Positions 853 to 14,217 of a stretch of DNA of 64,000 nt are shown piece by piece. Source of the DNA: Sulfurimonas sp. (GTDB lineage Bacteria > Campylobacterota > Campylobacteria > Campylobacterales > Sulfurimonadaceae); NCBI GenBank assembly GCA_002899765.1, contig PPDH01000025.1:1-64000 (forward strand). The letters run 5' to 3'. The number at the start of each line of letters is the position of its first letter. Within the stretch, counting starts at the first letter, position 1. A program made the translations under genes and the position numbers. Under the pieces are notes generated by a model. It made no database searches, was not told where the DNA came from, and saw only the letters and a program-made list of their open reading frames with translations.

Positions 853-1347
853 ATGGATAAGAATGAAACTCAATCAAAAAGGGAGAGATATCTCACTTTT
901 TACATAGGAAATGAGCAGTACGGGATAGCGATAAACAGAATCAAAGAGATTATCGCAATGATGAATATAACAAAAGTTCCAAAGATTCCCTCTTACATGA
1001 GAGGTGTCATCAATCTGCGAGGATCTATTATCCCGGTAGTCGATACAAGACTTCGATTTAATATGGATTATAGGGAAGCGGATATGCATACGGCGATTAT
1101 AATCGTTGAAGTCGAGAAGATAAGTATAGGATTTATAGTAGACAGGGTTGAAGAGGTATCTTCGATTGAGTCTTCAAGTTTGAGCGAGCCTCCTAAATTT
1201 GGGGGCGGTATAGATACGGATTTTATCTGTTCCGTGGCTCAAATAGAGGATAACGTAGTAATGATTTTAGACGTGCTTAAGCTTTTTGAAGCTGACGAGC
1301 TGGCTGATATAGAACAAATTGAACAAAAACAAACACAAGGAGAATAG
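853..1347 (+). CDS. cheW: CheW coupling protein
   Basis: This 164-residue protein is a single CheW domain, the adaptor that links chemoreceptors to CheA in the cytoplasmic signalling array. The hallmark segments are visible: [12 protein letters not shown] near residue 25, the [15 protein letters not shown] core near residue 50, and [11 protein letters not shown] near residue 92. A short acidic and Gln-rich tail follows. It lies 2 nt behind the CheY-like gene and 2 nt before the chemoreceptor, so the three are almost certainly co-transcribed and form a dedicated coupling set with the downstream CheA. Confidence 0.95.
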
Positions 1348-1349
1348 AG

Positions 1350-2993
1350 ATGAATTGGTTGGAGAATATGATTTTACAGACAAAGTTAATTTTGTTAACA
1401 GGGGTAATGATGATAGCGTTGGGTATCCTCGGATATCTAGGATTTAACACGACGCAAAAATGGGAGGGCGGCATAAACGAGCTGGGTGCAGTGAGGCTTC
1501 CTTCGATAGTAGGTCTTATGGATATGCGTATAGGTATAAATCAAGCGGTAATCCAGCAAAACCGTGTGCGTGGATTAAAAGGGGATTCGGAGTTAGGTAA
1601 GAAACTCGAAGATGCTATGAGCAGGATAAATACAGGTTTTGAGCGTTATGAAAAAGGACTTAAGATATATGCTCCCCTTCCTCAGACCCCCGAAGAGGAG
1701 ATAGAGTGGAAAAAATTTGAAAACGCATTTGCCAAATGGAAAGATATGAGCATGAAGTTTCAGACAAATGTTCTTGAACCGCTCTCTCACACTAGCGATG
1801 AAACGATGATGGAGAACTACTTCGCGCAGATGACCGCATTTGTAGAGATGAGCAGAGAGTCTCGCTCGGCAGCATTGCAGAGCATGAACAAGATAGCAGA
1901 TATAAATGTTGATGTCGCAAACAAGACTGTACATACTGCACAAGAAGATTCTAAAAGTGCTGTTGAGTTAACTATTATAATAGTGACAGCCGCATTTGCG
2001 CTCTCTATTTTGCTCGCGGTACTTATCATCCGCTCTATAACACGCTCAATTACTCAAAGTGTAACGACCATACGAGACGGAGCGATGCAGATAACATCTG
2101 CCAGCGATCAGGTTGCTTCATCTTCGTCTTCTTTGGCTCAGGGTGCAAGCGAACAGGCTTCGAGCGTTGAAGAGGTGAGTGCAACTTTAGAAGAGAGTAC
2201 GGCTATAAATACTCAAAATACCGATAATGCGCGTCAAGCCGACATATTGGCGAAAAATGCCAATGATTCGGCTAGGGCAGGATATCAAAAAGGCGAGCAG
2301 CTTGCTCAGTCTATGCATGCTATTACAGAGTCTGCGGCTAAGATATCCGGCATCATAAAAGCAATTGATCAGATTGCGTTTCAAACAAATCTCTTAGCAC
2401 TCAATGCAGCGGTTGAAGCGGCACGTGCAGGTGAACACGGTCTTGGGTTTGCGGTTGTAGCGGATGAAGTAAGAAATCTTGCACAAAGAGCGGCATCTGC
2501 GGCAAAAGAGACCTCTGATATCATAGAAGAGGTAGTAGAGCAGATAAAAGAGGGCAATGATATAGCTCATGCTACACATACCTCTTTCCAAGAGATAGTA
2601 GAGCAGTCTAAAAAAGTTTCAGACCTTATCGGAGAAATCTCTATCGCAGGCAAAGAACAAAGCGAAGGTATGACTCAGATTAATCAGGCTATGGGACAAG
2701 TAGATCAGGTGACACAACAAGTTGCCGCAAACTCGGAAGAGGCTGCAGCAGCCGCAGAAGAGCTAAATGCACAGGCAAGTTCTATGATGGAGACTGTAAG
2801 AATTTTAGCAAAAATGGTAGGAATGGAGTCTGATGCACCAATGGTTACGCAAAAAAAGAAGCCTCTGCATCAGATGGAGATTAAAAAGCCCGTGACTATG
2901 CAGAAAAAACCAAATGCGCCTAAAAATACTTCTTCAACTAATAGGGCTGAAGAGATTTTTCCTTTGCATGAAGACGATTTAAAAGAATTCTAG
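1350..2993 (+). CDS. Methyl-accepting chemotaxis protein (membrane chemoreceptor)
   Basis: This 547-residue chemoreceptor has a first membrane segment at about 10-31, a periplasmic helical sensor region of about 170 residues, a second membrane segment at about 205-227, and a cytoplasmic signalling hairpin whose tip ([17 protein letters not shown]) lies near residue 340. The tip normally continues EHGRGF or EHGKGF; here residue 365 is Leu (codon CTT 2442-2444), one G-to-T step from CGT. The C-terminus is Lys-rich with no obvious CheR-tethering pentapeptide. The ligand cannot be read from the sequence. The ATG follows AAGGAGAA, and the gene sits inside the che operon, so it is probably the dedicated receptor of this array. 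Confidence 0.93.
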
Positions 2994-3257
2994 ATGGAAT
3001 TCAACGGAGATATATTAACCATAGATATGTCTATATCTATGGAGGAAGTAGCAGAATTTGAAGAGTTTGTTCGTCCTAGAATTGATTATATCGAGACAAT
3101 CGAAGTAGAGGAAGAGGGTGCTCTAAGAAGCAGCGCTCTTATGGCTTTGCTGGTAAGTTTAAAACGAACTAAACCGGAACTAAAAATCCCTTTTTTAGAA
3201 AAAGGAGTGTTAGTTTCACAAAAATACGGAACTATTCATTGGATATGTCATGACTAA
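2994..3257 (+). CDS. Small STAS-like (anti-anti-sigma/MlaB-type) protein
   Basis: This 87-residue protein starts on the base after the chemoreceptor stop and overlaps cheA by 8 nt. Its alternating hydrophobic strands and the segment LRSSALMALLVSLKR, where the regulatory Ser of STAS domains would lie, suggest a STAS fold. No other domain is present. STAS proteins usually act as phospho-switchable partners in signalling, and stand-alone STAS genes occur in some non-flagellar chemosensory operons. A role as an output or scaffold factor for this array is inference. Remote similarity only; moderate confidence. Confidence 0.6.
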   Translation: MEFNGDILTIDMSISMEEVAEFEEFVRPRIDYIETIEVEEEGALRSSALMALLVSLKRTKPELKIPFLEKGVLVSQKYGTIHWICHD

Positions 3258-5316
3258 ACAAGAACAGGTAAAAGCTATCTTTATTGAAGAAGCAGGCGAG
3301 ATAATTGAAAAATTAGATATTGATATTATCCGCTTTGAAGAAAATAGCAGTGATTTTAGCTTATTAAACGAAATATTTCGCGGTGTTCATACTATAAAGG
3401 GCAATGCCAATGCTTTTGGTTTTATCCGCCTTGGCGAGTTTGTTCACCATTTTGAAGATGTGCTTGATTATTACCGCAGTACGCAGGAGAGCATAGAAGA
3501 GCACAATTTAGAGCTTTTTGTAGGCAGCGTTGATGTCATCAAAGAGGTTATGAACTGTGAACTTGATGCTATACCTACGCTGCCTCAAAGTTATGATGGC
3601 TGTTTAGAGAAGATTAAAAATCTTATCTCTGTAAAAAAGAACAAAGCATCTTCTGCTCAAGAGCCTCAAGAGAGTACGGCAGGGCTAAAAGATTTGGCTT
3701 TAGAGTTTGGCTTAAGCTGCTCAGAACAGCAGCAAAACTCTATACAAAGAGCTATTAAAGATGCTCAGGCTAAACAGAGCGAAGGGTTGAGTGTTTATAA
3801 AGTAGATTTAACGCTTGATACCGATTGTTATAAAAGAGGTTTTGACTATCTTCTGTTTTTAAACATGCTTGCACAAAAAGCCCTGTTGTTGGAGAGTTTT
3901 TTCAACATGGAGGGCATTGTTGAGATTGATAGTTTTAAAAGCGGTGAAAACTATATAGGAAAAGTGTCTATAGTTGTTTTAACTCCTCTCTCAAAAAGTG
4001 AAGCAGACGAATTTTTTGAATTTTTGTTTGATTATGAGTATGAGATAAATCTAATAGAACCGCCTGTATTGGAGGTGATTAAGCCATCGGTCGAGACTGC
4101 CAAAGCAGTTACGCAGAACATCGTGTCAAATTCTATGTCCTCAAAGTCGACTATCCGTATAGATACTTTTAAACTAGATGAACTTTTTGACTCGGTGGGA
4201 GAACTTGTAATAGCACAAAATTTTATAGCTCAAAACGATAAAATCAGATCCATAGAGGATGAGTCGATAAACCGTACTATAGAGACGCTCTCAAAAATTA
4301 CAAAAAGAATTCAAGACCGTGTTATGAGTCTTAGAATGGTCGCTATCAAAGATACTTTTGACAAGATGAAGAGAGTTGTGCGCGACACTTCTAAAAAGAC
4401 TCTCAAAGAAGTTAATCTAATCGTTCAAGGTGAAGATACGGAGATAGATAAAACCATGATAGACAGCCTGTCCGATCCGTTGATTCATATTATCAGAAAT
4501 GCGATAGACCACGGGTTGGAGGCAGATGCCGATGAGCGCATAAAAGCGGGTAAAAGCACTGAGGGCTCAGTTACTCTAAAAGCTTTTCACAAAAGCGGAA
4601 ACATCGTTATCAGCGTGAGTGATGACGGCAGAGGAATCAACAAAGAGAGAGTTTTGGCAAAGGCGATTGAGAGAGGTGTTATCAGCGGAGACGAAAATCT
4701 AAGCGACTCTCAGATATTTGCTCTTATCATGCAGCCCGGTTTTTCAACGGCGCAGAGCATTAGTGATTTATCAGGGCGCGGTGTAGGTTTGGATGTGGTA
4801 AAAACATCTATTGAAAAGCTTCGTGGAAAGATAGAAATCGACTCAAAAGAGGGTGAGGGAACTACGCTTTCTATGGTTCTTCCTCTAACACTTGCAATCA
4901 TTGACGGAATGCTTGTACGTACTGCAGGTGAGATATATATTATCCCGACTCTAAGTGTTGTCGAGTCGTTTCGTCCCGAAAAGGAGATTGTACATGTATT
5001 TAAAGAAAAAGGGGAGTTTGTCAGTTTAAGAGGGCAATATATTCCTGTTATGAGATTAAGCGATGTATTTAATCTTAATGCTAAGCGTATTGAACCGTGG
5101 GAAGGGATTTTGGTTTGTGTGGAGACCGAAGGAGGACGTATAGCGATTTTAGTCGATGAGCTGGTAGGCCGTCAGCAGGTTGTTATAAAAACATTGGGTA
5201 AAACATTGGCTATGCTAAAAGAGATTTCAGGCGGTGCAATTCTTGGAAACGGAGATATAGCACTTATTTTAAACGTAGATGAATTACGACCTTTGGTAGA
5301 AGCTTCACATGTTTGA
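3250..5316 (+). CDS. cheA: CheA chemotaxis histidine kinase
   Basis: This 688-residue kinase has an N-terminal Hpt domain with phospho-accepting H47 in VHTIKGNANAFG, a long middle region (about 110-290) of unclear type in place of a recognisable CheY-binding domain, the dimerisation helices from about 295, and the ATPase domain. That domain shows an N-box near 412 (HIIRNAIDHG), G1 DDGRGI near 458 and G2 GRGVGLDVV near 510. A C-terminal CheW-like domain (about 540-680) docks it to the receptor array. All catalytic motifs look intact. It overlaps the STAS gene upstream by 8 nt and cheR downstream by 8 nt. Confidence 0.95.
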   Translation: MTKQEQVKAIFIEEAGEIIEKLDIDIIRFEENSSDFSLLNEIFRGVHTIKGNANAFGFIRLGEFVHHFEDVLDYYRSTQESIEEHNLELFVGSVDVIKEVMNCELDAIPTLPQSYDGCLEKIKNLISVKKNKASSAQEPQESTAGLKDLALEFGLSCSEQQQNSIQRAIKDAQAKQSEGLSVYKVDLTLDTDCYKRGFDYLLFLNMLAQKALLLESFFNMEGIVEIDSFKSGENYIGKVSIVVLTPLSKSEADEFFEFLFDYEYEINLIEPPVLEVIKPSVETAKAVTQNIVSNSMSSKSTIRIDTFKLDELFDSVGELVIAQNFIAQNDKIRSIEDESINRTIETLSKITKRIQDRVMSLRMVAIKDTFDKMKRVVRDTSKKTLKEVNLIVQGEDTEIDKTMIDSLSDPLIHIIRNAIDHGLEADADERIKAGKSTEGSVTLKAFHKSGNIVISVSDDGRGINKERVLAKAIERGVISGDENLSDSQIFALIMQPGFSTAQSISDLSGRGVGLDVVKTSIEKLRGKIEIDSKEGEGTTLSMVLPLTLAIIDGMLVRTAGEIYIIPTLSVVESFRPEKEIVHVFKEKGEFVSLRGQYIPVMRLSDVFNLNAKRIEPWEGILVCVETEGGRIAILVDELVGRQQVVIKTLGKTLAMLKEISGGAILGNGDIALILNVDELRPLVEASHV

Positions 5317-6133
5317 TATTGAATTAAAACCACAGGAGTTTCAACTCTTTCGTAGTTATATTTATGAAAAAGTGGGTATTTCTCTCTCCGAGCAAAAAAC
5401 AACGCTCGTAAAAGGAAGACTCAACAAAAGGTTAAATCAGTTGGATATAACCTCGTTTAAAGATTATTATGACTACTTAGTCGGCGATGCAAGCGGTGAA
5501 GAACTTACATTTTTCATGAGTGCCATATCTACAAATGTCACCTCTTTTTTTCGCGAGGCTGCTCAATGGAGCTGGCTTGAGGGCTATCTGCCGCAGATGG
5601 CGGCATCAAAGAGAGAGAAAAAATTAAGAATCTGGTCGGCAGGATGTTCAAGCGGAGAAGAGCCGTATACGATTTTAATGTTTTTGCAAAATCATCTTCA
5701 TGATTTTGAGAGCTGGGATATTAAAATTTTGGCGACTGATATTTCATCAAAAGTTCTCTCCAAAGCAATTTTGGGTCATTATGAACCAAAACATGTAGAG
5801 CAGCTGCCAAAAAATGTAGTTATAAAATCTTTTGAAAAAGTACATGAGCAAAATGTTCTCAAATATCAGATAAAACCGTTTCTTAGGGAGAAAGTTATGT
5901 TTCGTTTATATAATCTTATTACAGACCCTTTCTTCATCAAAAATGAGTTTGACATGATTTTTTGCAGAAACGTTATGATCTATTTTGATGAAGCAAACAG
6001 AAATAATCTTATAGGGCGCTTTACGACTCTTCTGCCAAAGGGAGCACCTCTTTTTTTAGGAAGTTCTGAATCTTTAACATCACATAAAAATAGCCTGAAA
6101 CTTTTGGGTTCTTCAATTTATCAAAAAATATAA
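5309..6133 (+). CDS. cheR: CheR chemoreceptor glutamate methyltransferase
   Basis: This 274-residue enzyme transfers methyl groups from S-adenosylmethionine to receptor glutamates to adapt the array. It has the N-terminal helical domain and the SAM-binding motif IWSAGCSSGEEPYT near residue 108, followed by ILATDISSKVL and FCRNVMIYFD near residue 217, all typical of CheR. No TPR extension is present. The start overlaps cheA by 8 nt, implying translational coupling. Its antagonist would be the CheB encoded at 8824, which is broken in this sequence. Confidence 0.94.
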   Translation: MFDIELKPQEFQLFRSYIYEKVGISLSEQKTTLVKGRLNKRLNQLDITSFKDYYDYLVGDASGEELTFFMSAISTNVTSFFREAAQWSWLEGYLPQMAASKREKKLRIWSAGCSSGEEPYTILMFLQNHLHDFESWDIKILATDISSKVLSKAILGHYEPKHVEQLPKNVVIKSFEKVHEQNVLKYQIKPFLREKVMFRLYNLITDPFFIKNEFDMIFCRNVMIYFDEANRNNLIGRFTTLLPKGAPLFLGSSESLTSHKNSLKLLGSSIYQKI

Positions 6134-6142
6134 GGTTATGAT

Positions 6143-7507
6143 GTGAAAAATTCAGAACTCCATGTCTCATCACAAGAAGCAAAGTTTGATCTTAGTGAAC
6201 TCTTCTTCTCAATTACAAAAACTGATAGTACGATACTTTCGGGGAATGAGACGTTTGTGCGTATCAGCGGATATGAAAGAGATGAAATTATAGGAGAGTT
6301 CCATAATATCATCCGTCATCCGGATATGCCTCGTGTAGTTTTCAAAACATTTTGGGATTTTTTAAATGCAGGCAAGAGTGTTGCGGCTTATGTTAAAAAC
6401 AGAACAAAAGAGGGCGGTTACTATTGGGTTTTTGCCGTAGTTTTTCCGCTAAGAGAGCGTTATGTATCCATACGTATAAAGCCAAATTCACAGCTGTTTG
6501 GTTCCGTAAAAGGGCTGTATGCTCAACTTCTTGAATCTCAAGAGAGCTTAGATATGCAAGAGAGCGAGCAGCAGCTTTTAGAGGCGTTAAAGAGTTTTGG
6601 TTATCGTGATTATGAGCATTTTATGAATGAAGCTTTGATTGCAGAGCTTTTGATGCGAAAAAAACTTTTTTTAGAGAGAGAAGCAATAGATGACTCTTTT
6701 TGTGCAAAATCGGAGTTGGAATTAAAGATAGAAGAACTCTACTGCTCTAGCAAAAAAATGCTTGAGCGGTATGCTAAATGGTTTGAAAAAATTGAAGGAT
6801 TTAGCAAAATAAAGTCACTCTTTGAGGAGAAATCTCTTGTTCTTAGTTCACTTGCAAGGGATATAGTGTTTTTATCGCTCAATGCGTCGGTTGCATCTTA
6901 CAGAGTAGATACTTACGGTGAGACATTCGGTGTTTTAGCGAGCGACATTAGAGTCAATGCCAAAGAGAACGATATTTTAATCGCTCAGATTGACGTACTC
7001 TCTCAATCTTTGTCCGAGTCGCTAAACGAGGTTATATTTTTAGTCTCATCCATTAGTCTGCAGATGGAGATGATTACTTACTTTATAAGAGAGCTTTTTG
7101 AGAACAATAATGAAGAGCTGACTAAAAATGTCTCCTTCTTGTTTGAACTAGTACATGTATATAACAAGAAGCTCAGCGAACTTGTTTTGATGATAGAAAA
7201 AACGATTCAAAAGAGTATTTTGCATCTAAATGCGCTTGAAGAGCAGATTATGTACTTAGGGTATGTTCAGATATACGGGATTATCGAATCAGCCAGAAGC
7301 AATGACGAATCTTCAGGTTTTTCAGAGATATTTTTGCAGTTAAAATCTCTAATCGCAAATACGACGCAAGAGGTTTCAGAGATAAAGCAAGTAGTTGAGA
7401 AATTTTTTACGGATAATCACATTTTGATAAATGAGTCAAAAGAGAATGAGAAGATGCTTGTCAAACTCGAAGATGAGATATCTGATATCAATAATATAGA
7501 GGGCTGA
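6143..7507 (+). CDS. PAS-domain protein with a degenerate chemoreceptor-like hairpin
   Basis: The start is GTG at 6143; ATG codons at 6138 and 6141 run straight into a stop. Residues 15-120 form an Aer-type PAS domain (GNETFVRISGYERDEIIGE, then IIRHPDMPR), which in related proteins binds FAD or haem for redox or energy sensing. From residue 239 the segment FLSLNASVASYRVDTYGETF aligns in register with the receptor tip [21 protein letters not shown], but most array-contact residues are changed. The rest is helical with no membrane segment. It therefore looks like a soluble receptor-like protein whose signalling tip has diverged. The alignment is by eye; its role in the array is inference. Confidence 0.72.
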   Translation: MKNSELHVSSQEAKFDLSELFFSITKTDSTILSGNETFVRISGYERDEIIGEFHNIIRHPDMPRVVFKTFWDFLNAGKSVAAYVKNRTKEGGYYWVFAVVFPLRERYVSIRIKPNSQLFGSVKGLYAQLLESQESLDMQESEQQLLEALKSFGYRDYEHFMNEALIAELLMRKKLFLEREAIDDSFCAKSELELKIEELYCSSKKMLERYAKWFEKIEGFSKIKSLFEEKSLVLSSLARDIVFLSLNASVASYRVDTYGETFGVLASDIRVNAKENDILIAQIDVLSQSLSESLNEVIFLVSSISLQMEMITYFIRELFENNNEELTKNVSFLFELVHVYNKKLSELVLMIEKTIQKSILHLNALEEQIMYLGYVQIYGIIESARSNDESSGFSEIFLQLKSLIANTTQEVSEIKQVVEKFFTDNHILINESKENEKMLVKLEDEISDINNIEG

Positions 7508-7510
7508 GTT

Positions 7511-8335
7511 TTGGAAAATATAGTAAATAAAGAGAACATGAGTGATGAGTTGGAATTTTTGAGCAAAAAAATCTTAGAGTTAAATAAAAAACTTATAGAT
7601 GGCGAAAAAGCAAAGTCAAGGTTTCTCTCACTTGTGGCAAACAAGTTAAACAACCCTCTGACAGCTATTTTGGGGATAATGCCTCATTTGAAAATTATAG
7701 ATACACAAGAGAATAAACTCCTCTTTGAATTGGTTTACAAAGAGGTTTTAAATCTTGATTTTAAAATTCAAAATCTGGTGATGGCATCCGAAATAGAGAG
7801 CGGAAATATTGACATCTCTTATGCTTTGGTAGATCCTAAAGAGATTATAGATGAAGCTCTTGAGTGTTTAAAATATCTCATAAAAGAGAAAAACATCGAA
7901 ATAAAGATAAAGAGCTCAATCAAACAAAAAGTTGTGACAGACCCGAAAAAAGTCTATATAATAGTAAAAAACCTTATCTCAAACGGCTGCAGATACGGTT
8001 TTGAAAATAGTGTAATTACGATTGCTTTGGATATTGAAGATTCAATGTTTGTTATTAAAGTAAAAAATCAAGGAGATGCACCTAAAGTAAAGTATAAACC
8101 TGAAATATTTACGCGTTTTGCAAAAGATGCTGACGGCAAACACGGTTTGGGCATAGGTCTTAGTGTTGTCCGCGAGATATGTGAAAGAGTTGAGGGAAGC
8201 ATAGATTATGAGGCTGATGATGGATTTGTGACTTTTGTTGTTAGGCTCTCACTTGATGAAAATATGGTAGATTCCCAAGCTTACGGGTCAAATGAGTTTC
8301 TCTTTGAATCCTTTGATGATGCTATTGAGTTATAA
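7511..8335 (+). CDS. Histidine-kinase-like protein lacking the phospho-histidine
   Basis: This 274-residue cytoplasmic protein starts at TTG 7511 behind GAGGG; an alternative ATG lies at 7538. An N-terminal coiled coil leads into a HisKA-like helix in which the usual SHELRTPL reads ANKLNNPL, so the phospho-acceptor His is N44 (codon AAC 7640-7642, one C-to-A step from CAC). The ATPase half keeps the N-box (LISNGCRYG) and a strong G2 box (HGLGIGLSVVREI), but the DxGxG motif is replaced by NQGDAP. It may bind ATP without autophosphorylating. It lies 3 nt behind the PAS gene and 2 nt before cheD, so it probably works inside the chemosensory system. Confidence 0.78.
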   Translation: MENIVNKENMSDELEFLSKKILELNKKLIDGEKAKSRFLSLVANKLNNPLTAILGIMPHLKIIDTQENKLLFELVYKEVLNLDFKIQNLVMASEIESGNIDISYALVDPKEIIDEALECLKYLIKEKNIEIKIKSSIKQKVVTDPKKVYIIVKNLISNGCRYGFENSVITIALDIEDSMFVIKVKNQGDAPKVKYKPEIFTRFAKDADGKHGLGIGLSVVREICERVEGSIDYEADDGFVTFVVRLSLDENMVDSQAYGSNEFLFESFDDAIEL

Positions 8336-8337
8336 CA

Positions 8338-8808
8338 ATGATAGAAGGTAATTCAACTTTTATACATGTAGGACAGTTACATGTTGATGTCGCACCTGCC
8401 GCAATTTCAACTATTTTAGGTTCTTGTGTGGCAGTTTGTCTTTATGACAGAAAATCGGGTATTGGCGGAATGAACCACTATCTGCTCCCTTTTTGGAACG
8501 GCAACTCTTTGCAATCTCCAAGATTTGGTAATATTGCTATTCCAAAACTAATAGAGAGTATGCTTGAGAGAGGTGCCAATATAAAAAATATAGAGGCAAA
8601 GATTTTTGGCGGTGCATCTATGAATATATCTGCATCAAACAATATGATGATAGGTGAAAAAAATATTTTGGTTGCAAGAGAGATTTTAAAAGAGTATAAA
8701 ATTCACATAGTGGCTGAAGATGTCGGTAAAGAAAACGGCAGAAAAATTCAGTTTAATCTGCAAAATGCGAAGGTGCTTTTAAAGTATACCATGAAGGCAC
8801 ATGTATGA
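8338..8808 (+). CDS. cheD: CheD chemoreceptor glutamine deamidase
   Basis: This 156-residue enzyme deamidates receptor glutamines to glutamates and in some bacteria also interacts with CheC. The catalytic Cys is C30 in LGSCVAV and the catalytic His is H47 in GGMNHY, followed by the conserved IFGGASM segment. Length and motifs match the family. It lies 2 nt after the kinase-like gene and just before cheB, a common cheD-cheB arrangement. No CheC is visible in the window. Confidence 0.93.
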   Translation: MIEGNSTFIHVGQLHVDVAPAAISTILGSCVAVCLYDRKSGIGGMNHYLLPFWNGNSLQSPRFGNIAIPKLIESMLERGANIKNIEAKIFGGASMNISASNNMMIGEKNILVAREILKEYKIHIVAEDVGKENGRKIQFNLQNAKVLLKYTMKAHV

Positions 8809-9846
<1,038 letters not shown>

Positions 9847-10239: not shown

Positions 10240-11900
10240 AAGAGCCGCTTATTTTAATTATTGACGATAACTTTGACAGTCGTTTGGCAGTTCGCTCGGC
10301 GCTTAGAAAAAAAGGATATCTTTTTTTAGAGGCACAAGATGCAAAAGAGGGTATCGATATGGCGATAGAGCATAATCCTGATTTGATTATTATGGATATT
10401 ATGATGCCGCAGATAAACGGCTATGAAGCTCTGCGCATAATTAAAGGAAGCGATAAAACAAAGCATATTCCAGTCTTGATTGTCTCTGCGCTTAGTTCGA
10501 TGAACGAGAAGATTGTTGCTTTGGAATACGGTGCAGACGGGATGCTTACAAAACCATTTGATAGAATCCATTTGGCAGAGCAGATAGAAGCATTGGTAGG
10601 GTTTTATAAAAATGGTTTAAATACTAAAGCAGAGATTATAGAACAAAAAGAGAGATTGGACAATGTTTTACATAGACAAAGCGAAGAGCTTATACGTTAC
10701 TACTATACAGATGCTCTAACCGGGCTTCCAAATCGAAGCCAGCTTATAAAAGATATAGTCAATGCAGTAAATTCATCTCTGATTTTGATAGACATCGACG
10801 GTTTTAAGGATATTGTCTATTTTTACGGTCATGAAACAGGTGATTTGTGTCTTAAATCATTCGCATTAAAAATAAAACAACTTTTAAAGGGCGACAAGTA
10901 TAAGCATTACAGAATTTCGGGCGATATATTTGCCGTTTTAGTAAAAGAGTGCAGTGCAGCAGAAGAGCTTAATAATCTTATGAGGCAATTTGTCTATGAA
11001 ATGAATAGGACAAACTTTTTATGTGAAGGGCATGAGATGCACTTTAGATTTACGGTTGGTGCCTCTATGTTTGAGAGTGAGCTTTTAATAAGTGCTGAAA
11101 AAGCTCTTAAAACTGCAAAAACAGCAAATAAAACTATACTTTTATATGATGAAAAGAGTGAAGAGTTTAGATTTTATGAACAGAATATATTTTGGGTAAA
11201 CAAAATAGTCGAGGCGATATCATGTGATAATATCGTTACTTTTTATCAGCCTATAATTAACAATAAAACTCATAAGATAGAAAAATACGAGTGTTTAGTG
11301 CGCATTATTGAAAGAGACGGTACTATTTATGCGCCGATAAAATTTCTAGATATTTCCAAAAAATCAAAACACTACGCTGCTATCACAAAAAATGTAATAG
11401 AAAAATCGTTTAAAAAATTCAAGAACAGTGATTGTCAATTTTCCATAAACCTTTCGGCTAAAGACATGATAGATAGCGAAATATCGGAATATATCTACGA
11501 TAAACTTAATAGCTTTAACGGATGCAACAGGGTTATTTTTGAGCTTCTTGAGTCGGAAGGAGTCGAAAATTACAGTGCCGTTTACGCTTTTATAAGCAAG
11601 GTAAAAGAGTATGGATGTCAGATTGCGATTGATGATTTTGGAAGCGGATATTCAAATTTTATACATCTTTTACGACTGAAAGTTGATATTATAAAAATTG
11701 ACGGGTCTCTAATAAGAGATTTAGATATAGATGAAAATGCACAAATTATGGTTCAGACAATTGTTGATTTTGCGAAAAAACTTGGTATATTAACCGTTGC
11801 AGAGTTTGTGCACTCCGAATCCATCAGCCGTATAGTCAAAGATCTAGGAGTCGATTATTCTCAAGGGTATTTTATAGGAGAGCCTAGTAATGAAATTTAA
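10236..11900 (+). CDS. Receiver-GGDEF-EAL protein (probable c-di-GMP phosphodiesterase)
   Basis: This 554-residue protein has a receiver domain (1-120; phospho-acceptor D54 in IIMDIMMP) and a GGDEF domain (about 160-300) whose active-site motif reads SGDIF instead of GGDEF, so cyclase activity is unlikely. The EAL domain (about 325-554) shows YECLVR at the EAL position, NLSA, FELLES, IDDFGSGYSNF, KIDGSLI and QGYFIGEP. The metal-binding and catalytic residues of EAL appear kept, so it probably hydrolyses cyclic di-GMP under phosphorylation control. It overlaps its neighbours by 4 and 11 nt, tying second-messenger turnover to this chemosensory locus. Confidence 0.9.
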   Translation: MKEPLILIIDDNFDSRLAVRSALRKKGYLFLEAQDAKEGIDMAIEHNPDLIIMDIMMPQINGYEALRIIKGSDKTKHIPVLIVSALSSMNEKIVALEYGADGMLTKPFDRIHLAEQIEALVGFYKNGLNTKAEIIEQKERLDNVLHRQSEELIRYYYTDALTGLPNRSQLIKDIVNAVNSSLILIDIDGFKDIVYFYGHETGDLCLKSFALKIKQLLKGDKYKHYRISGDIFAVLVKECSAAEELNNLMRQFVYEMNRTNFLCEGHEMHFRFTVGASMFESELLISAEKALKTAKTANKTILLYDEKSEEFRFYEQNIFWVNKIVEAISCDNIVTFYQPIINNKTHKIEKYECLVRIIERDGTIYAPIKFLDISKKSKHYAAITKNVIEKSFKKFKNSDCQFSINLSAKDMIDSEISEYIYDKLNSFNGCNRVIFELLESEGVENYSAVYAFISKVKEYGCQIAIDDFGSGYSNFIHLLRLKVDIIKIDGSLIRDLDIDENAQIMVQTIVDFAKKLGILTVAEFVHSESISRIVKDLGVDYSQGYFIGEPSNEI

Positions 11901-14217
11901 ACTTAACTCTATAGTCTTTAAAATGATGGTGCCTTTGATGGCGGTTGCAATTTTAGTCGTTGGTATTACGTATTTAGTAACGCAGACATATCTAAAAAAA
12001 GTCGTTGAAGATGTTTTTATTGATCTTCAGGCGCATCATCTTGAAGAGATATACTCCTTAAAAATGGAAAATATTCTCATTGAGATTCAAAGTGCCGGAA
12101 CTGCTATCGCTGCTTCAAAAGAGATTGAAAGTTTTCTTTTAAGTCAAGATGCGGCAGAAGGAAAAATGTCGCCGCATATGAAGCAGAAGCTCTATGATTT
12201 GAAACAACTTTATAAACTCGATATGATATACGTCGCTCATGCAAAAAGCAGAAACTATTTTAACGAAAACGGTTTTCTCAGAGTTGTAAATCCATCCGAT
12301 AAAGAGAGCGGATGGTTTTTAAAAACGCTCCATGGCAAAAAAAGCTTTTTAATCAATACGGATGCAGATTTTGCACAAAGTCTGCATATATGGATTGACG
12401 GAATTGTCGGCAGCGAGGATAACCCCATAGGTCTTGCAGGAGGCGGAGTAGATATAGATAACATTTTTGAAATAGCGCTTGGAGATTTTCACGAATATAG
12501 CGCAGATGTAACCATCCTCCGCGGCGCAGATACGCTTCACGCATCTTCAAAAAAAGACAGCATCTTAAATATACCTCTGCATAATTCAGATTTGAGCCAA
12601 GAGAAAATATCAGCTATACAAGTTGCAAAAATAAGAGACGAACGTTTAGCCGAATATAAAATTAACGCCAAATCAAGACAGCTTATCTTTATTCCCGTAA
12701 AAAAGCTTGATTGGACTATAATCGTAGACTTTTAAAAAGATGAATTTTTAGAAGTGCTCCACGGTATATACGACAGAATTATAACAGGAGGAATTATTTT
12801 ACTCTTTTTGCTTCTTTTGGTAGGCACTCTGACTTTTACATATTTGGTATCGAGGCCTCTTGCCAAGATCTCATCCGCAGTCGGTGTTTTTGACTACGAA
12901 AGTGATTTTGAAATCAAAGAACGCAAGCATATGAGCGATGAGTTTGACATGATATATGAGGCATTTAGAAAAAGTTCTGCTCTTTTGAGAAAAACCATAG
13001 ATGAGTATAAGTATAACGAAGAGCTTTTAAAGAGTATTATAAACGCCGCCGATGATTTGATATTTTATAAAGATACCAAAAATATGTACTTAGGGGGTAA
13101 CAGTGCGTACGAGAAGTGGCTCTCAAAGAGTATTGATGAGCTTATAGGCAAAACGGATAACGAACTTTATCCGCCCGATATCGCAAGTTATCATGTAAAG
13201 ACGGATAAACAGGTTGTAGAGCAAAAGCGTACCATTCTTGTAGAAGAGAGATTTCAAAAAAATAACGGAAATTTTGTAATACTTCAGGTAAAAAAGAGTC
13301 CGTTTTACGATAAAGACGGTAACGTCAAAGGCGTAGTGGTCGTTGCAAGAGATATGACCATGATAAAAGAGATGGAGCAATCCCTGCTTACTTTAAATTC
13401 TACGTTGGAAAAAAGAGTAGAAGATAAGACGCTTGAACTTCAAAAGTCAAATGAGATACTTGAAGAGCATATAGTAGATCTTGAAATACTAAACTCAAAG
13501 CTTATGAGAACAAGAACTGAAGCCCTGCAGGCAGCGCAGGCAAGATCTAACTTTATTACAGGTATTTCACATGAGCTAAGAACACCGCTTAATGCAATCA
13601 TCAATTTTACGGATCAAGTTATAGAAGATTTTGATGAGATGCTTGAAGATAAAGAACTTCAAGAAGATACAAAAAAGTTTATGCAAAGAGTTTTGGTAAA
13701 CTCAAGACATCTGTTGAATCTTATAAATGATTTGCTTGAGTTTACAAAAGCGGAAGCCGGAAAAATAGATTATAAAATTGAGGAGTATGATTTAAATATT
13801 ATTGCAAAAATGGCATACAACAATACATACTCTCTGCTAAACGGAACTGATGTAAAATTTAATTTAAAGTTATGCAAAACACCGCTCATGGCAATGGTTG
13901 ATTCAAGACGATTTTTGCAGATACTTTTAAATCTACTCTCAAATGCAATAAAATTTACTCAAAAGGGAATGATTGAGTTAAGAAGTTTTGAAGAAGAGGG
14001 TCATGCAATTGTTGAGATAGAAGACAGTGGAAAGGGCATACCGAAGGATAAACAAAGCACAATATTTGATCCGTTTATACAGGTAAACAGTACCGATAAC
14101 GGAACAGGACTGGGACTGGGACTCGTAAAAAGAATGTGTGATGACATGGATATTAAAATCTCATTTACTTCTATTGAGAATGAAGGAACGATTTTTCGTT
14201 TAGTTGTATTAAAATAA
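11890..14217 (+). pseudogene. Membrane sensor histidine kinase, interrupted by an in-frame TAA
   Basis: The reading frame from ATG 11890 gives a membrane segment at about 12-32, a periplasmic Cache-like sensor region, then TAA at 12733-12735 in the segment IIVDF-stop-KDEFL. The same frame continues with a second membrane segment (from about 12780), HAMP-like linker, PAS domain (about 13000-13370), coiled coil, HisKA with intact SHELRTPLNAI near 13570, and an ATPase domain with N-box LLSNAIKFT and GTGLGLGL. Apart from the stop it is a complete sensor kinase of about 775 residues. GTG 12754 could start a kinase without its sensor. It is the likely partner of the receivers just upstream. Confidence 0.9.

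What the first reader, a model, noticed from the sequence alone, without database searches (positions are those of the whole stretch)
6859..7000. PAS protein carries a fossil of the chemoreceptor signalling tip
The segment FLSLNASVASYRVDTYGETF, then LASDIRVNAKEN, lines up residue for residue with the conserved receptor tip ([18 protein letters not shown], then [12 protein letters not shown]) but most CheA/CheW contact residues are changed. It may bind the array without activating CheA, acting as a redox-tuned decoy, or it may have a new partner such as the kinase-like protein encoded next.
Basis: partly seen in the sequence, partly recalled or inferred. Interest (0 to 1): 0.62.

Follow-up and report, generated by a model that had tools for sequence, protein, structure and literature searches.

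The report
Natural single-chain two-tip redox receptor
The protein is a redox-sensor-like domain joined to two different copies of the chemoreceptor signalling hairpin in one chain; it belongs to a conserved, widespread family often encoded near chemotaxis genes, and it may show nature splitting between two tips the jobs that one receptor tip normally does alone.

Summary
It is not a fossil, and half of the finding was missed. The same protein (6143-7507, 454 aa) carries a second MCP hairpin, tip at residues 370-408, in the same register. Family profiles of both hairpins match MCPs (hhalign P 4.5e-15 and 1.6e-9) and each other (4.2e-8); no shuffle came close. The hairpin-2 profile alone ranks eight MCP sequences first in the PDB. 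AlphaFold (pLDDT 90, pTM 0.86) gives an Aer-like PAS plus four helices of about 62 residues in one bundle; by topology both tips are at one end: a single-chain counterpart of an MCP dimer without methylation helices. By record titles the family spans Campylobacterota, Aquificota, Bdellovibrionota, Planctomycetes, Alphaproteobacteria and others. The tips keep different residues: Asn247 in 70 of 70, Glu382 in 68 of 70. Core che genes lie nearby in 33 of 80 loci; dN/dS is 0.125. The next gene encodes a histidine-kinase-like protein with the phospho-acceptor His in 0 of 16. Most likely a non-adapting redox input into the chemosensory array (inferred). Natural single-chain MCP-like proteins are mentioned in print, so this is a new variant.

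The parts
6143..7507 (+). Whole gene, 454 aa: PAS + neck + two MCP-type hairpins in one chain
6170..6532 (+). PAS domain, residues 10-130, closest to the PAS of E. coli Aer
   Evidence: PDB 8dik 36-40% identity, VIA Z 17.3 rmsd 1.4 over 122 residues; phmmer Aer E 1.6e-22
6533..6712 (+). Helical neck between PAS and bundle, residues 131-190
   Evidence: AlphaFold helices 117-133, 138-151, 157-178
6713..7102 (+). Hairpin 1, residues 191-320 (helices 191-215, 217-254 and 259-320)
6860..6967 (+).
7103..7111 (+). Base turn 321-323 joining the two hairpins; lies in the part of the bundle with the widest length variation
   Evidence: AlphaFold break; region 312-334 is 20-35 aa long among 70 members
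7112..7501 (+). Hairpin 2, residues 324-453 (helices 324-385 and 393-453)
7250..7366 (+).
7511..8335 (+). Histidine-kinase-like neighbour, 274 aa: no phospho-acceptor His, G1-box Asp replaced by Asn, conserved C-terminal tail
853..6133 (+). Upstream part of the chemosensory cluster: CheW 853-1347, MCP 1350-2993 (aligns to Tsr without gaps over 262 residues), small protein 2994-3257, CheA 3250-5316, CheR 5309-6133
   Evidence: CheW named by its resemblance, not run through Pfam
8338..9846 (+). Downstream part: CheD 8338-8808, CheB receiver 8812-9186 and CheB esterase 9250-9846 (in-frame stop between them)

Best explanation
The 6143-7507 product is a soluble redox receptor whose signalling part is a single-chain counterpart of an MCP dimer. 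An Aer-type, probably FAD-binding PAS domain is joined by a helical neck to two tandem MCP hairpins. The chain runs up, down, up, down as one four-helix bundle about 62 residues long, which corresponds to Tsr residues of about 325-454: the protein-interaction tip and flexible bundle without the methylation region. By topology both tips lie at the end far from the PAS domain. Shown by sequence: two MCP hairpins, their conservation, their association with chemosensory genes. Predicted: the fold. Inferred: the protein joins the chemosensory array encoded around it, taking the place of one receptor dimer in trimers with the neighbouring MCP and touching CheW/CheA, so that it feeds a redox signal to CheA that cannot be adapted by methylation. 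Because the two hairpins keep different residues, each probably serves a different position in the trimer (axis or periphery). In Sulfurimonas and Sulfuricurvum the next gene adds a dead-kinase-like accessory protein of unknown contact.
For: Hairpin 1 and hairpin 2 of 70 members match a 53-MCP profile at P 4.5e-15 and 1.6e-9 and each other at 4.2e-8; the best of 150 heptad-preserving shuffles of hairpin 2 reached P 1.3e-4 against MCP and 6.5e-5 against hairpin 1; reversed hairpin 2 gave 9.1e-4 and 6.1e-3. Hairpin-2 profile against the whole PDB: 271 sequences at E up to 10, 60 shown, the first 8 are MCPs (E 3.6e-7 to 1.3e-5; some are variants of one protein). Full-family profile finds MCP 2ch7/3ja6 at 1e-14 and Tsr 1qu7 at 1.6e-10. 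AlphaFold pLDDT 90.0, pTM 0.86; a Solirubrobacter member, 29% identical, gives four such helices at pLDDT 91.3, pTM 0.89. Single-chain four-helix bundles are the best structural matches to 191-453 (5vjs Z 19.0, rmsd 2.3, 193 aligned). Length varies at the base turn but little in helices: 51 aa in 62, 69 and 68 of 70 for helices A, B and C. Core che genes in 33 of 80 loci, 16 of the 62 outside L108-L125, 13 of those 62 with CheA; CheA in 28 of 32 genomes. Purifying selection.
Against: No experiment shows binding to CheW, CheA or MCPs. In 43 of 80 loci no che or MCP gene passed my thresholds in the fetched DNA (several contigs are short), and 4 of 32 genomes gave no CheA (all four are MAG records, completeness not told). 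31 of 70 members give no MCPsignal match at E 0.001, and one scanned relative, L039, gave none even at E 10. With hairpin 2 alone Tsr (1qu7) comes only at E 0.0017, behind unrelated bundles. The window's own tips have lost the Glu385 (tip 1) and Asn381 (tip 2) equivalents, which could weaken trimer or CheW contacts. AlphaFold was run as a monomer, so a homodimer or strand-swapped pair is not excluded. Flavin binding rests on resemblance to Aer.
Confidence: 0.6

Rival explanations
1. DosM-like rod: two MCP signalling domains at opposite ends of a long molecule, bridging two CheA/CheW layers.
For: DosM also has two signalling domains in one chain and is a rod with one at each end (PMC7534058, passages read).
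Against: Helices B and C would have to be continuous, but the stretch between them varies from 20 to 35 residues among 70 members while the helices are nearly constant; AlphaFold breaks the helix at 321-323 and the closest folds are compact four-helix bundles; a second divergent member agrees.
Confidence: 0.06
2. Decoy: it binds the array through its tips but cannot activate CheA, and so lowers kinase output when the PAS domain is in one redox state.
For: The window's tip 1 has Ala for the Tsr 385 Glu and tip 2 has Tyr for the Tsr 381 Asn; the bundle is too short for a methylation region.
Against: Each of these two lost residues is present in the other hairpin, so a set exists across the pseudo-dimer; 20 of 70 members have all six scored positions in both tips, and Nitratiruptor-type members, whose tips carry them, lie in che operons.
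Confidence: 0.17
3. It signals mainly to the kinase-like protein at 7511 rather than to the array.
For: The two genes occur together in 16 of 16 loci of this lineage and are adjacent in 15 of 16.
Against: No clear homologue of the kinase-like protein was seen in the Nitratiruptor-type or Bdellovibrionota loci (one weak distant kinase hit in L169); it has the phospho-acceptor His in 0 of 16 and Asn for the ATP-site Asp in 16 of 16.
Confidence: 0.12
4. Ordinary CetB-like PAS protein with an unrelated coiled coil; the tip resemblance is coincidence.
For: The PAS part matches many CetB-like proteins of about 170 aa in relatives (CetB-like is my label); the single-sequence MCP score is under the Pfam cut-off.
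Against: Profile comparisons with shuffled and reversed controls and the PDB search with hairpin 2 alone.
Confidence: 0.02

Closest known systems
E. coli Aer (PAS-HAMP-MCP aerotaxis receptor)
   Same: PAS domain closest in sequence and fold (8dik, 31cj); PAS input to an MCP-type hairpin
   Different: Aer is a membrane-bound homodimer with HAMP and one hairpin per chain (recalled); here no HAMP match in Pfam, two hairpins in one chain, divergent tips
CetA/CetB bipartite energy-taxis receptor of Campylobacter
   Same: CetB is a FAD-binding PAS redox sensor in the same phylum (PMC13401364, passages)
   Different: CetB is an isolated PAS that signals through a separate CetA; here PAS and hairpins are one chain
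Engineered single-chain Tsr~Tsr and Tar; [quoted passage not shown] centenum and others
   Same: Two MCP hairpins in one chain (PMC4692393: abstract, passages, introduction, section 26 and part of the reference list read)
   Different: Engineered Tsr halves are the same protein twice; the natural ones are only mentioned there, and I did not compare their sequences; a PAS fusion and unlike tips are not described in what I read
DosM of Vibrio cholerae F9 arrays
   Same: Two signalling domains in one chain
   Different: DosM has the two at opposite ends of a rod; here length variation and model put them side by side

Membership tests
MCP signalling domain (PF00015) | Whole-protein score over Pfam's gathering cut-off | tested here: not met
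   32.0 bits against 34.6 for the window protein; of five relatives scanned two exceed it (37.2 and 36.4 bits) and three do not; 39 of 70 members match at E 0.001 or better
MCP signalling domain (PF00015) | Hairpin tip in register with the highly conserved MCP tip | tested here: met
   Both hairpins, ungapped over 101 and 103 columns; PDB search
MCP signalling domain (PF00015) | Methylation helices flanking the tip | tested here: not met
   Helices end about 62-66 residues from the tips, short of the Tsr sites at 297, 304, 311 and 493 (sites from PMC6606802, passages); Tsr numbering carried over by alignment
MCP signalling domain (PF00015) | Homodimer of one hairpin per chain, trimers of dimers, CheA/CheW binding | not testable with these tools
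   Sequence and monomer model point to two hairpins per chain; oligomers and binding need experiments
Aer-type FAD PAS | PAS fold with the Aer sequence motifs | tested here: met
   36-40% identity to 8dik; HN..RHPDMP and VKNR.K.G..YWV shared; that these line the flavin is recalled, and the cofactor was not tested
DosM double-signalling-domain receptors | Two signalling domains at opposite ends of a rod | tested here: not met
   Variable-length base turn and compact bundle in two models; by prediction only
Active histidine kinase (gene 7511) | Phospho-acceptor His in HisKA and Asp in the G1 box | tested here: not met
   His in 0 of 16 (12 Asn, 3 Ser, 1 Tyr); Asn at the G1 Asp in 16 of 16; N-box Asn and G2 glycines intact in 16 of 16

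The most novel reading that the evidence does not exclude
Evolution has fixed the inside and outside halves of a receptor dimer in one polypeptide. Hairpin 1 (Asn247 in 70 of 70, Lys/Arg254 in 61 of 70, Ala or Ser at the Tsr 400 position in 69 of 70) and hairpin 2 (Glu382 in 68 of 70, Gly379 in 67 of 70, Phe397 in 56 of 70) are specialised for different positions in the trimer of dimers. The family is then an ancient, widespread class of adaptation-free redox receptors that show which tip residues are needed at the trimer axis and which at the CheA/CheW face.
Probability: 0.35. Interest if true: 0.8.

Novelty: new variant of a known kind. Interest (0 to 1): 0.62.

Why it matters
In a normal MCP dimer the two tips are identical but sit in two environments, and ordinary mutations cannot tell the two apart; this is the problem for which single-chain Tsr was engineered (PMC4692393, introduction read). 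A natural family in which the two tips have diverged, found in many phyla, offers some 70 aligned natural experiments on which residue is needed where. It also suggests an overlooked class of soluble redox inputs to chemosensory arrays (31 of 70 give no MCPsignal match at E 0.001), and it accounts for an unnamed gene in che clusters of Sulfurimonas, Sulfuricurvum and Nitratiruptor-type genomes.

Tried and rejected
A profile of only 17 nearly identical own-genome MCPs was too narrow for single-sequence scoring: many Sulfurimonas-type members scored weakly, several with whole-sequence E above 0.01 and up to 0.62, and L039 at 2.3, so I went to profile-profile comparison.

Hairpin 1 against hairpin 2 with the 32-member alignment was not convincing (P 0.0075 for the tips alone, 0.035 for the halves); only the 70-member alignment gave 4.7e-8. 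With the narrow alignment hhalign put a 3-residue gap in the rising helix of tip 2; with the wide one there was none.

The structure searches list de novo bundles, TTYH and ClyA-type helical proteins, a PilJ periplasmic and a TorS sensor region, and PAS/LOV domains; MCP cytoplasmic domains are not among the 50 rows shown. This does not speak against MCP homology, since each MCP chain holds one hairpin, but it is no support either. I read the helical matches only as 'compact four-helix bundle'; the tool warns that helical models often reach Z 14, so Z 19.0 is clear and Z 15.7 (second model) modest.

Three of 34 hits were dropped before the counts: L079_16681 by the E-value limit, L075_943 and L077_1455 by me; all three match only within the PAS stretch, and the latter two do not align at the tip. 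For A2, 70 of 81 sequences were used; L112, L116, L119, L128, L153, L164, L167, L169, L180, L183 and L184 were left out by me as fragments, near-duplicates, relatives already represented or (L167) a match that ran outside one frame. L153 (367 aa) has no recognisable tips.

Literature: nine searches (listings and starts of abstracts seen) showed no description of a PAS protein with two unlike MCP hairpins in one chain; one search listed no paper for its terms on a kinase-dead protein in a chemotaxis operon. Three papers were not held, among them Wuichet & Zhulin 2010, and Berleman & Bauer 2005 was not looked up, so prior description there cannot be excluded. Tsr numbering of tip residues is partly recalled; the Glu385-Arg388' lock and Phe396 stacking were read as passages in PMC8144572.

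Full report
What was checked. The gene at 6143-7507 (+) encodes 454 aa. It lies in a chemosensory cluster: receiver 407, CheW 853, MCP 1350, a small protein 2994, CheA 3250, CheR 5309, this gene, a kinase-like gene 7511, CheD 8338, CheB 8812/9250 (the first two named by resemblance, not by Pfam). The protein is 93% identical to one of Sulfurimonas sp. RIFOXYB12. The neighbouring MCP aligns with E. coli Tsr without a gap over 262 residues. Pfam gives PAS_3 (E 1e-13) and a sub-threshold MCPsignal match at 233-310. Of 19 MCPsignal matches in the genome, 18 are over the cut-off and this one is not.

The second tip. Aligning full-length relatives showed two conserved blocks in the helical part, not one. 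The second, in residues 370-408, reads LGYVQIYGIIESARSNDESSGFSEIFLQLKSLI, and in Nitratiruptor-type relatives LDFIHINGLIESAHTKEEGGGFTIIFSQMLKLIE. That is the MCP pattern [29 protein letters not shown] (own-genome MCPs) in register. The window's second part alone matches MCPsignal weakly (E 0.0056, profile positions 58-104) in the same register as the first, 131 residues further on.

Statistics. With 32 members, hairpin 1 and hairpin 2 match 17 own-genome MCPs at P 4.1e-11 and 1.5e-6; 0 of 200 heptad-phase-preserving column shuffles was as good in either case (best 3.8e-4 and 7.2e-4), and reversed profiles give 0.13 and 0.022. With 70 members and 53 MCPs (17 own, 36 from the fetched loci) the values are 4.5e-15 and 1.6e-9, and hairpin 1 against hairpin 2 gives 4.2e-8; the alignments run without a gap over 101, 103 and 93 columns. 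For hairpin 2 the best of 150 shuffles reached 1.3e-4 (MCP) and 6.5e-5 (hairpin 1), and the reversed profile 9.1e-4 and 6.1e-3. The hairpin-2 profile alone, run against all PDB sequences with their many coiled coils, ranks eight MCP sequences first (E 3.6e-7 to 1.3e-5; some are variants of one protein), before a designed bundle (5e-5); Tsr 1qu7 comes at 0.0017 among unrelated bundles.

Fold. AlphaFold with the 70-row alignment gives pLDDT 90.0 and pTM 0.86: PAS, a helical neck, then helices 191-215/217-254, 259-320, 324-385, 393-453. The closest solved folds of 191-453 are single-chain four-helix bundles (5vjs Z 19.0, rmsd 2.3, 193 aligned); the PAS matches Aer (8dik, Z 17.3, rmsd 1.4, 122 aligned). 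A Solirubrobacter member, 29% identical to the window protein, was predicted separately with the same four long helices (pLDDT 91.3, pTM 0.89; bundle 8d9o Z 15.7, rmsd 2.5, 194 aligned). Independently of any model, helix lengths are nearly fixed (51 aa in 62, 69 and 68 of 70 for A, B, C; 47 aa in 57 of 70 for D) while the region joining the hairpins runs from 20 to 35 aa. Seven of 70 are 14 residues, two heptads, shorter in helix A. A chain that turns back at both tips and at the base brings the two tips to the same end. This is the layout of an MCP dimer made from one chain. The helices reach to the equivalent of about Tsr 325-454, so the methylation region is absent.

Spread. Several are isolates, so this is not a binning artefact, though the Nocardioides record has tips nearly identical to those of Leisingera from the same strain series and may be contamination. 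In the window's order the full-length protein is patchy: in 398 genomes (at most six candidates scored in each), 40 listed matches stand apart from the ordinary MCPs (E 1.6e-12 or better against 1.4e-7 or worse).

Neighbourhood. In the Sulfurimonas/Sulfuricurvum type the order CheR - this gene - kinase-like gene - CheD - CheB is nearly constant: the kinase-like gene is present in 16 of 16 loci, window included, and adjacent in 15 of 16. In Nitratiruptor-type genomes the order is CheA-CheW-CheV-CheY-MCP-this gene, without the kinase-like gene (CheV and CheY named by my reading). Members in records titled Oligoflexia, Bdellovibrio and relatives, Dadabacteria, Omnitrophota and Balneola also lie among che genes. 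In numbers, 33 of 80 loci have a core che gene in the fetched DNA (17 of 18 in L108-L125, 16 of 62 in L126-L187, eight of these 16 from the Nitratiruptor type), 13 of those 62 have CheA, 4 of 80 have only an MCP and 43 of 80 none. From the 39 CheA matches in 32 genomes totalling about 136 Mb (my sum), a 17-kb window would hold a CheA in about 0.5% of cases. CheA is present in 28 of 32 genomes tested.

What is conserved at the tips. Counts in 70 members: tip 1, Tsr-381 Asn 70, Tsr-388 Lys/Arg 61, Tsr-393 Gly 63, Tsr-385 Glu only 25. Tip 2, Tsr-385 Glu 68, Tsr-382 Gly 67, Tsr-396 Phe 58, Tsr-400 Phe 56, Tsr-381 Asn 24. Twenty of 70 have all six scored positions. In the window protein tip 1 lacks the Glu and tip 2 lacks the Asn, so the set is complete only across the two hairpins. 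Glu385 and Arg388 form an inter-dimer lock in receptor trimers (PMC8144572, passage read), and in a trimer one subunit of each dimer faces the axis while the other lies at the periphery near CheA/CheW (PMC4692393, abstract and introduction read). Division of labour between the hairpins is therefore a natural reading, but it is inferred.

Not a fossil. Against the 93% relative dN/dS is 0.125 for the gene, 0.053 for tip 1, 0.098 for tip 2 (few changes in the tips), and 0.163 for the kinase-like neighbour.

The neighbour at 7511. HATPase and a sub-threshold HisKA match are present, but the phospho-acceptor position is Asn 12, Ser 3, Tyr 1 of 16, and the G1-box Asp is Asn in 16 of 16; N-box Asn and G2 glycines are kept in 16 of 16. 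A tail (N/D)EFLF(E/D)SF followed by IEL-like residues is conserved in nearly all. It is a conserved pseudokinase candidate, probably a scaffold or regulator; what the tail binds is unknown.

How it probably works. The PAS domain senses redox state through flavin, as Aer does (inferred from resemblance). The signal passes the neck into the single-chain bundle. The bundle takes one dimer's place in the array of the cluster and alters CheA activity. Lacking methylation helices, it would give a steady, non-adapting bias. Whether the bias is up or down, and whether this lineage has become a decoy, cannot be told from sequence.

Relation to the known. [quoted passage not shown] DosM carries two signalling domains at opposite ends of a rod (PMC7534058, passages). 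The family here differs in its Aer-type PAS, its unlike tips and, by prediction, side-by-side arrangement. I call it a new variant of a known kind.

Noticed in passing
window 8812-9846: The cluster's CheB reads as two ORFs in one frame, split by a TAA between receiver and esterase domains, while most relatives have one CheB ORF of about 340 aa. Real mutation or assembly error unknown.
   Followed up: partly
window 11890-14217: A sensor-kinase frame is likewise interrupted by an in-frame TAA at 12733-12735; the 93% relative's locus (L070) has longer kinase ORFs there.
   Followed up: partly
window 7511-8335: Histidine-kinase-like protein with the phospho-acceptor His in 0 of 16 loci and a conserved acidic/aromatic C-terminal tail; possible docking peptide for CheD, CheB or another partner.
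   Followed up: partly
window 2994-3257: Small 87-aa protein between MCP and CheA, found in most of this lineage's clusters, no Pfam match at E 1; I labelled it STAS-like from its look only.
   Followed up: no
L075, L077, L079: Three clusters carry a further PAS-containing protein of 477-503 aa nearby that shares only a PAS stretch with this family.
   Followed up: no
L038, L086, L090: Nitratiruptor-type genomes can hold a second, more divergent copy (about 30% identical to the window protein) with no che gene recognised around it.
   Followed up: partly
L184: A Nocardioides marinus record holds a protein with tips nearly identical to those of Leisingera from the same strain series; probably contamination.
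   Followed up: no
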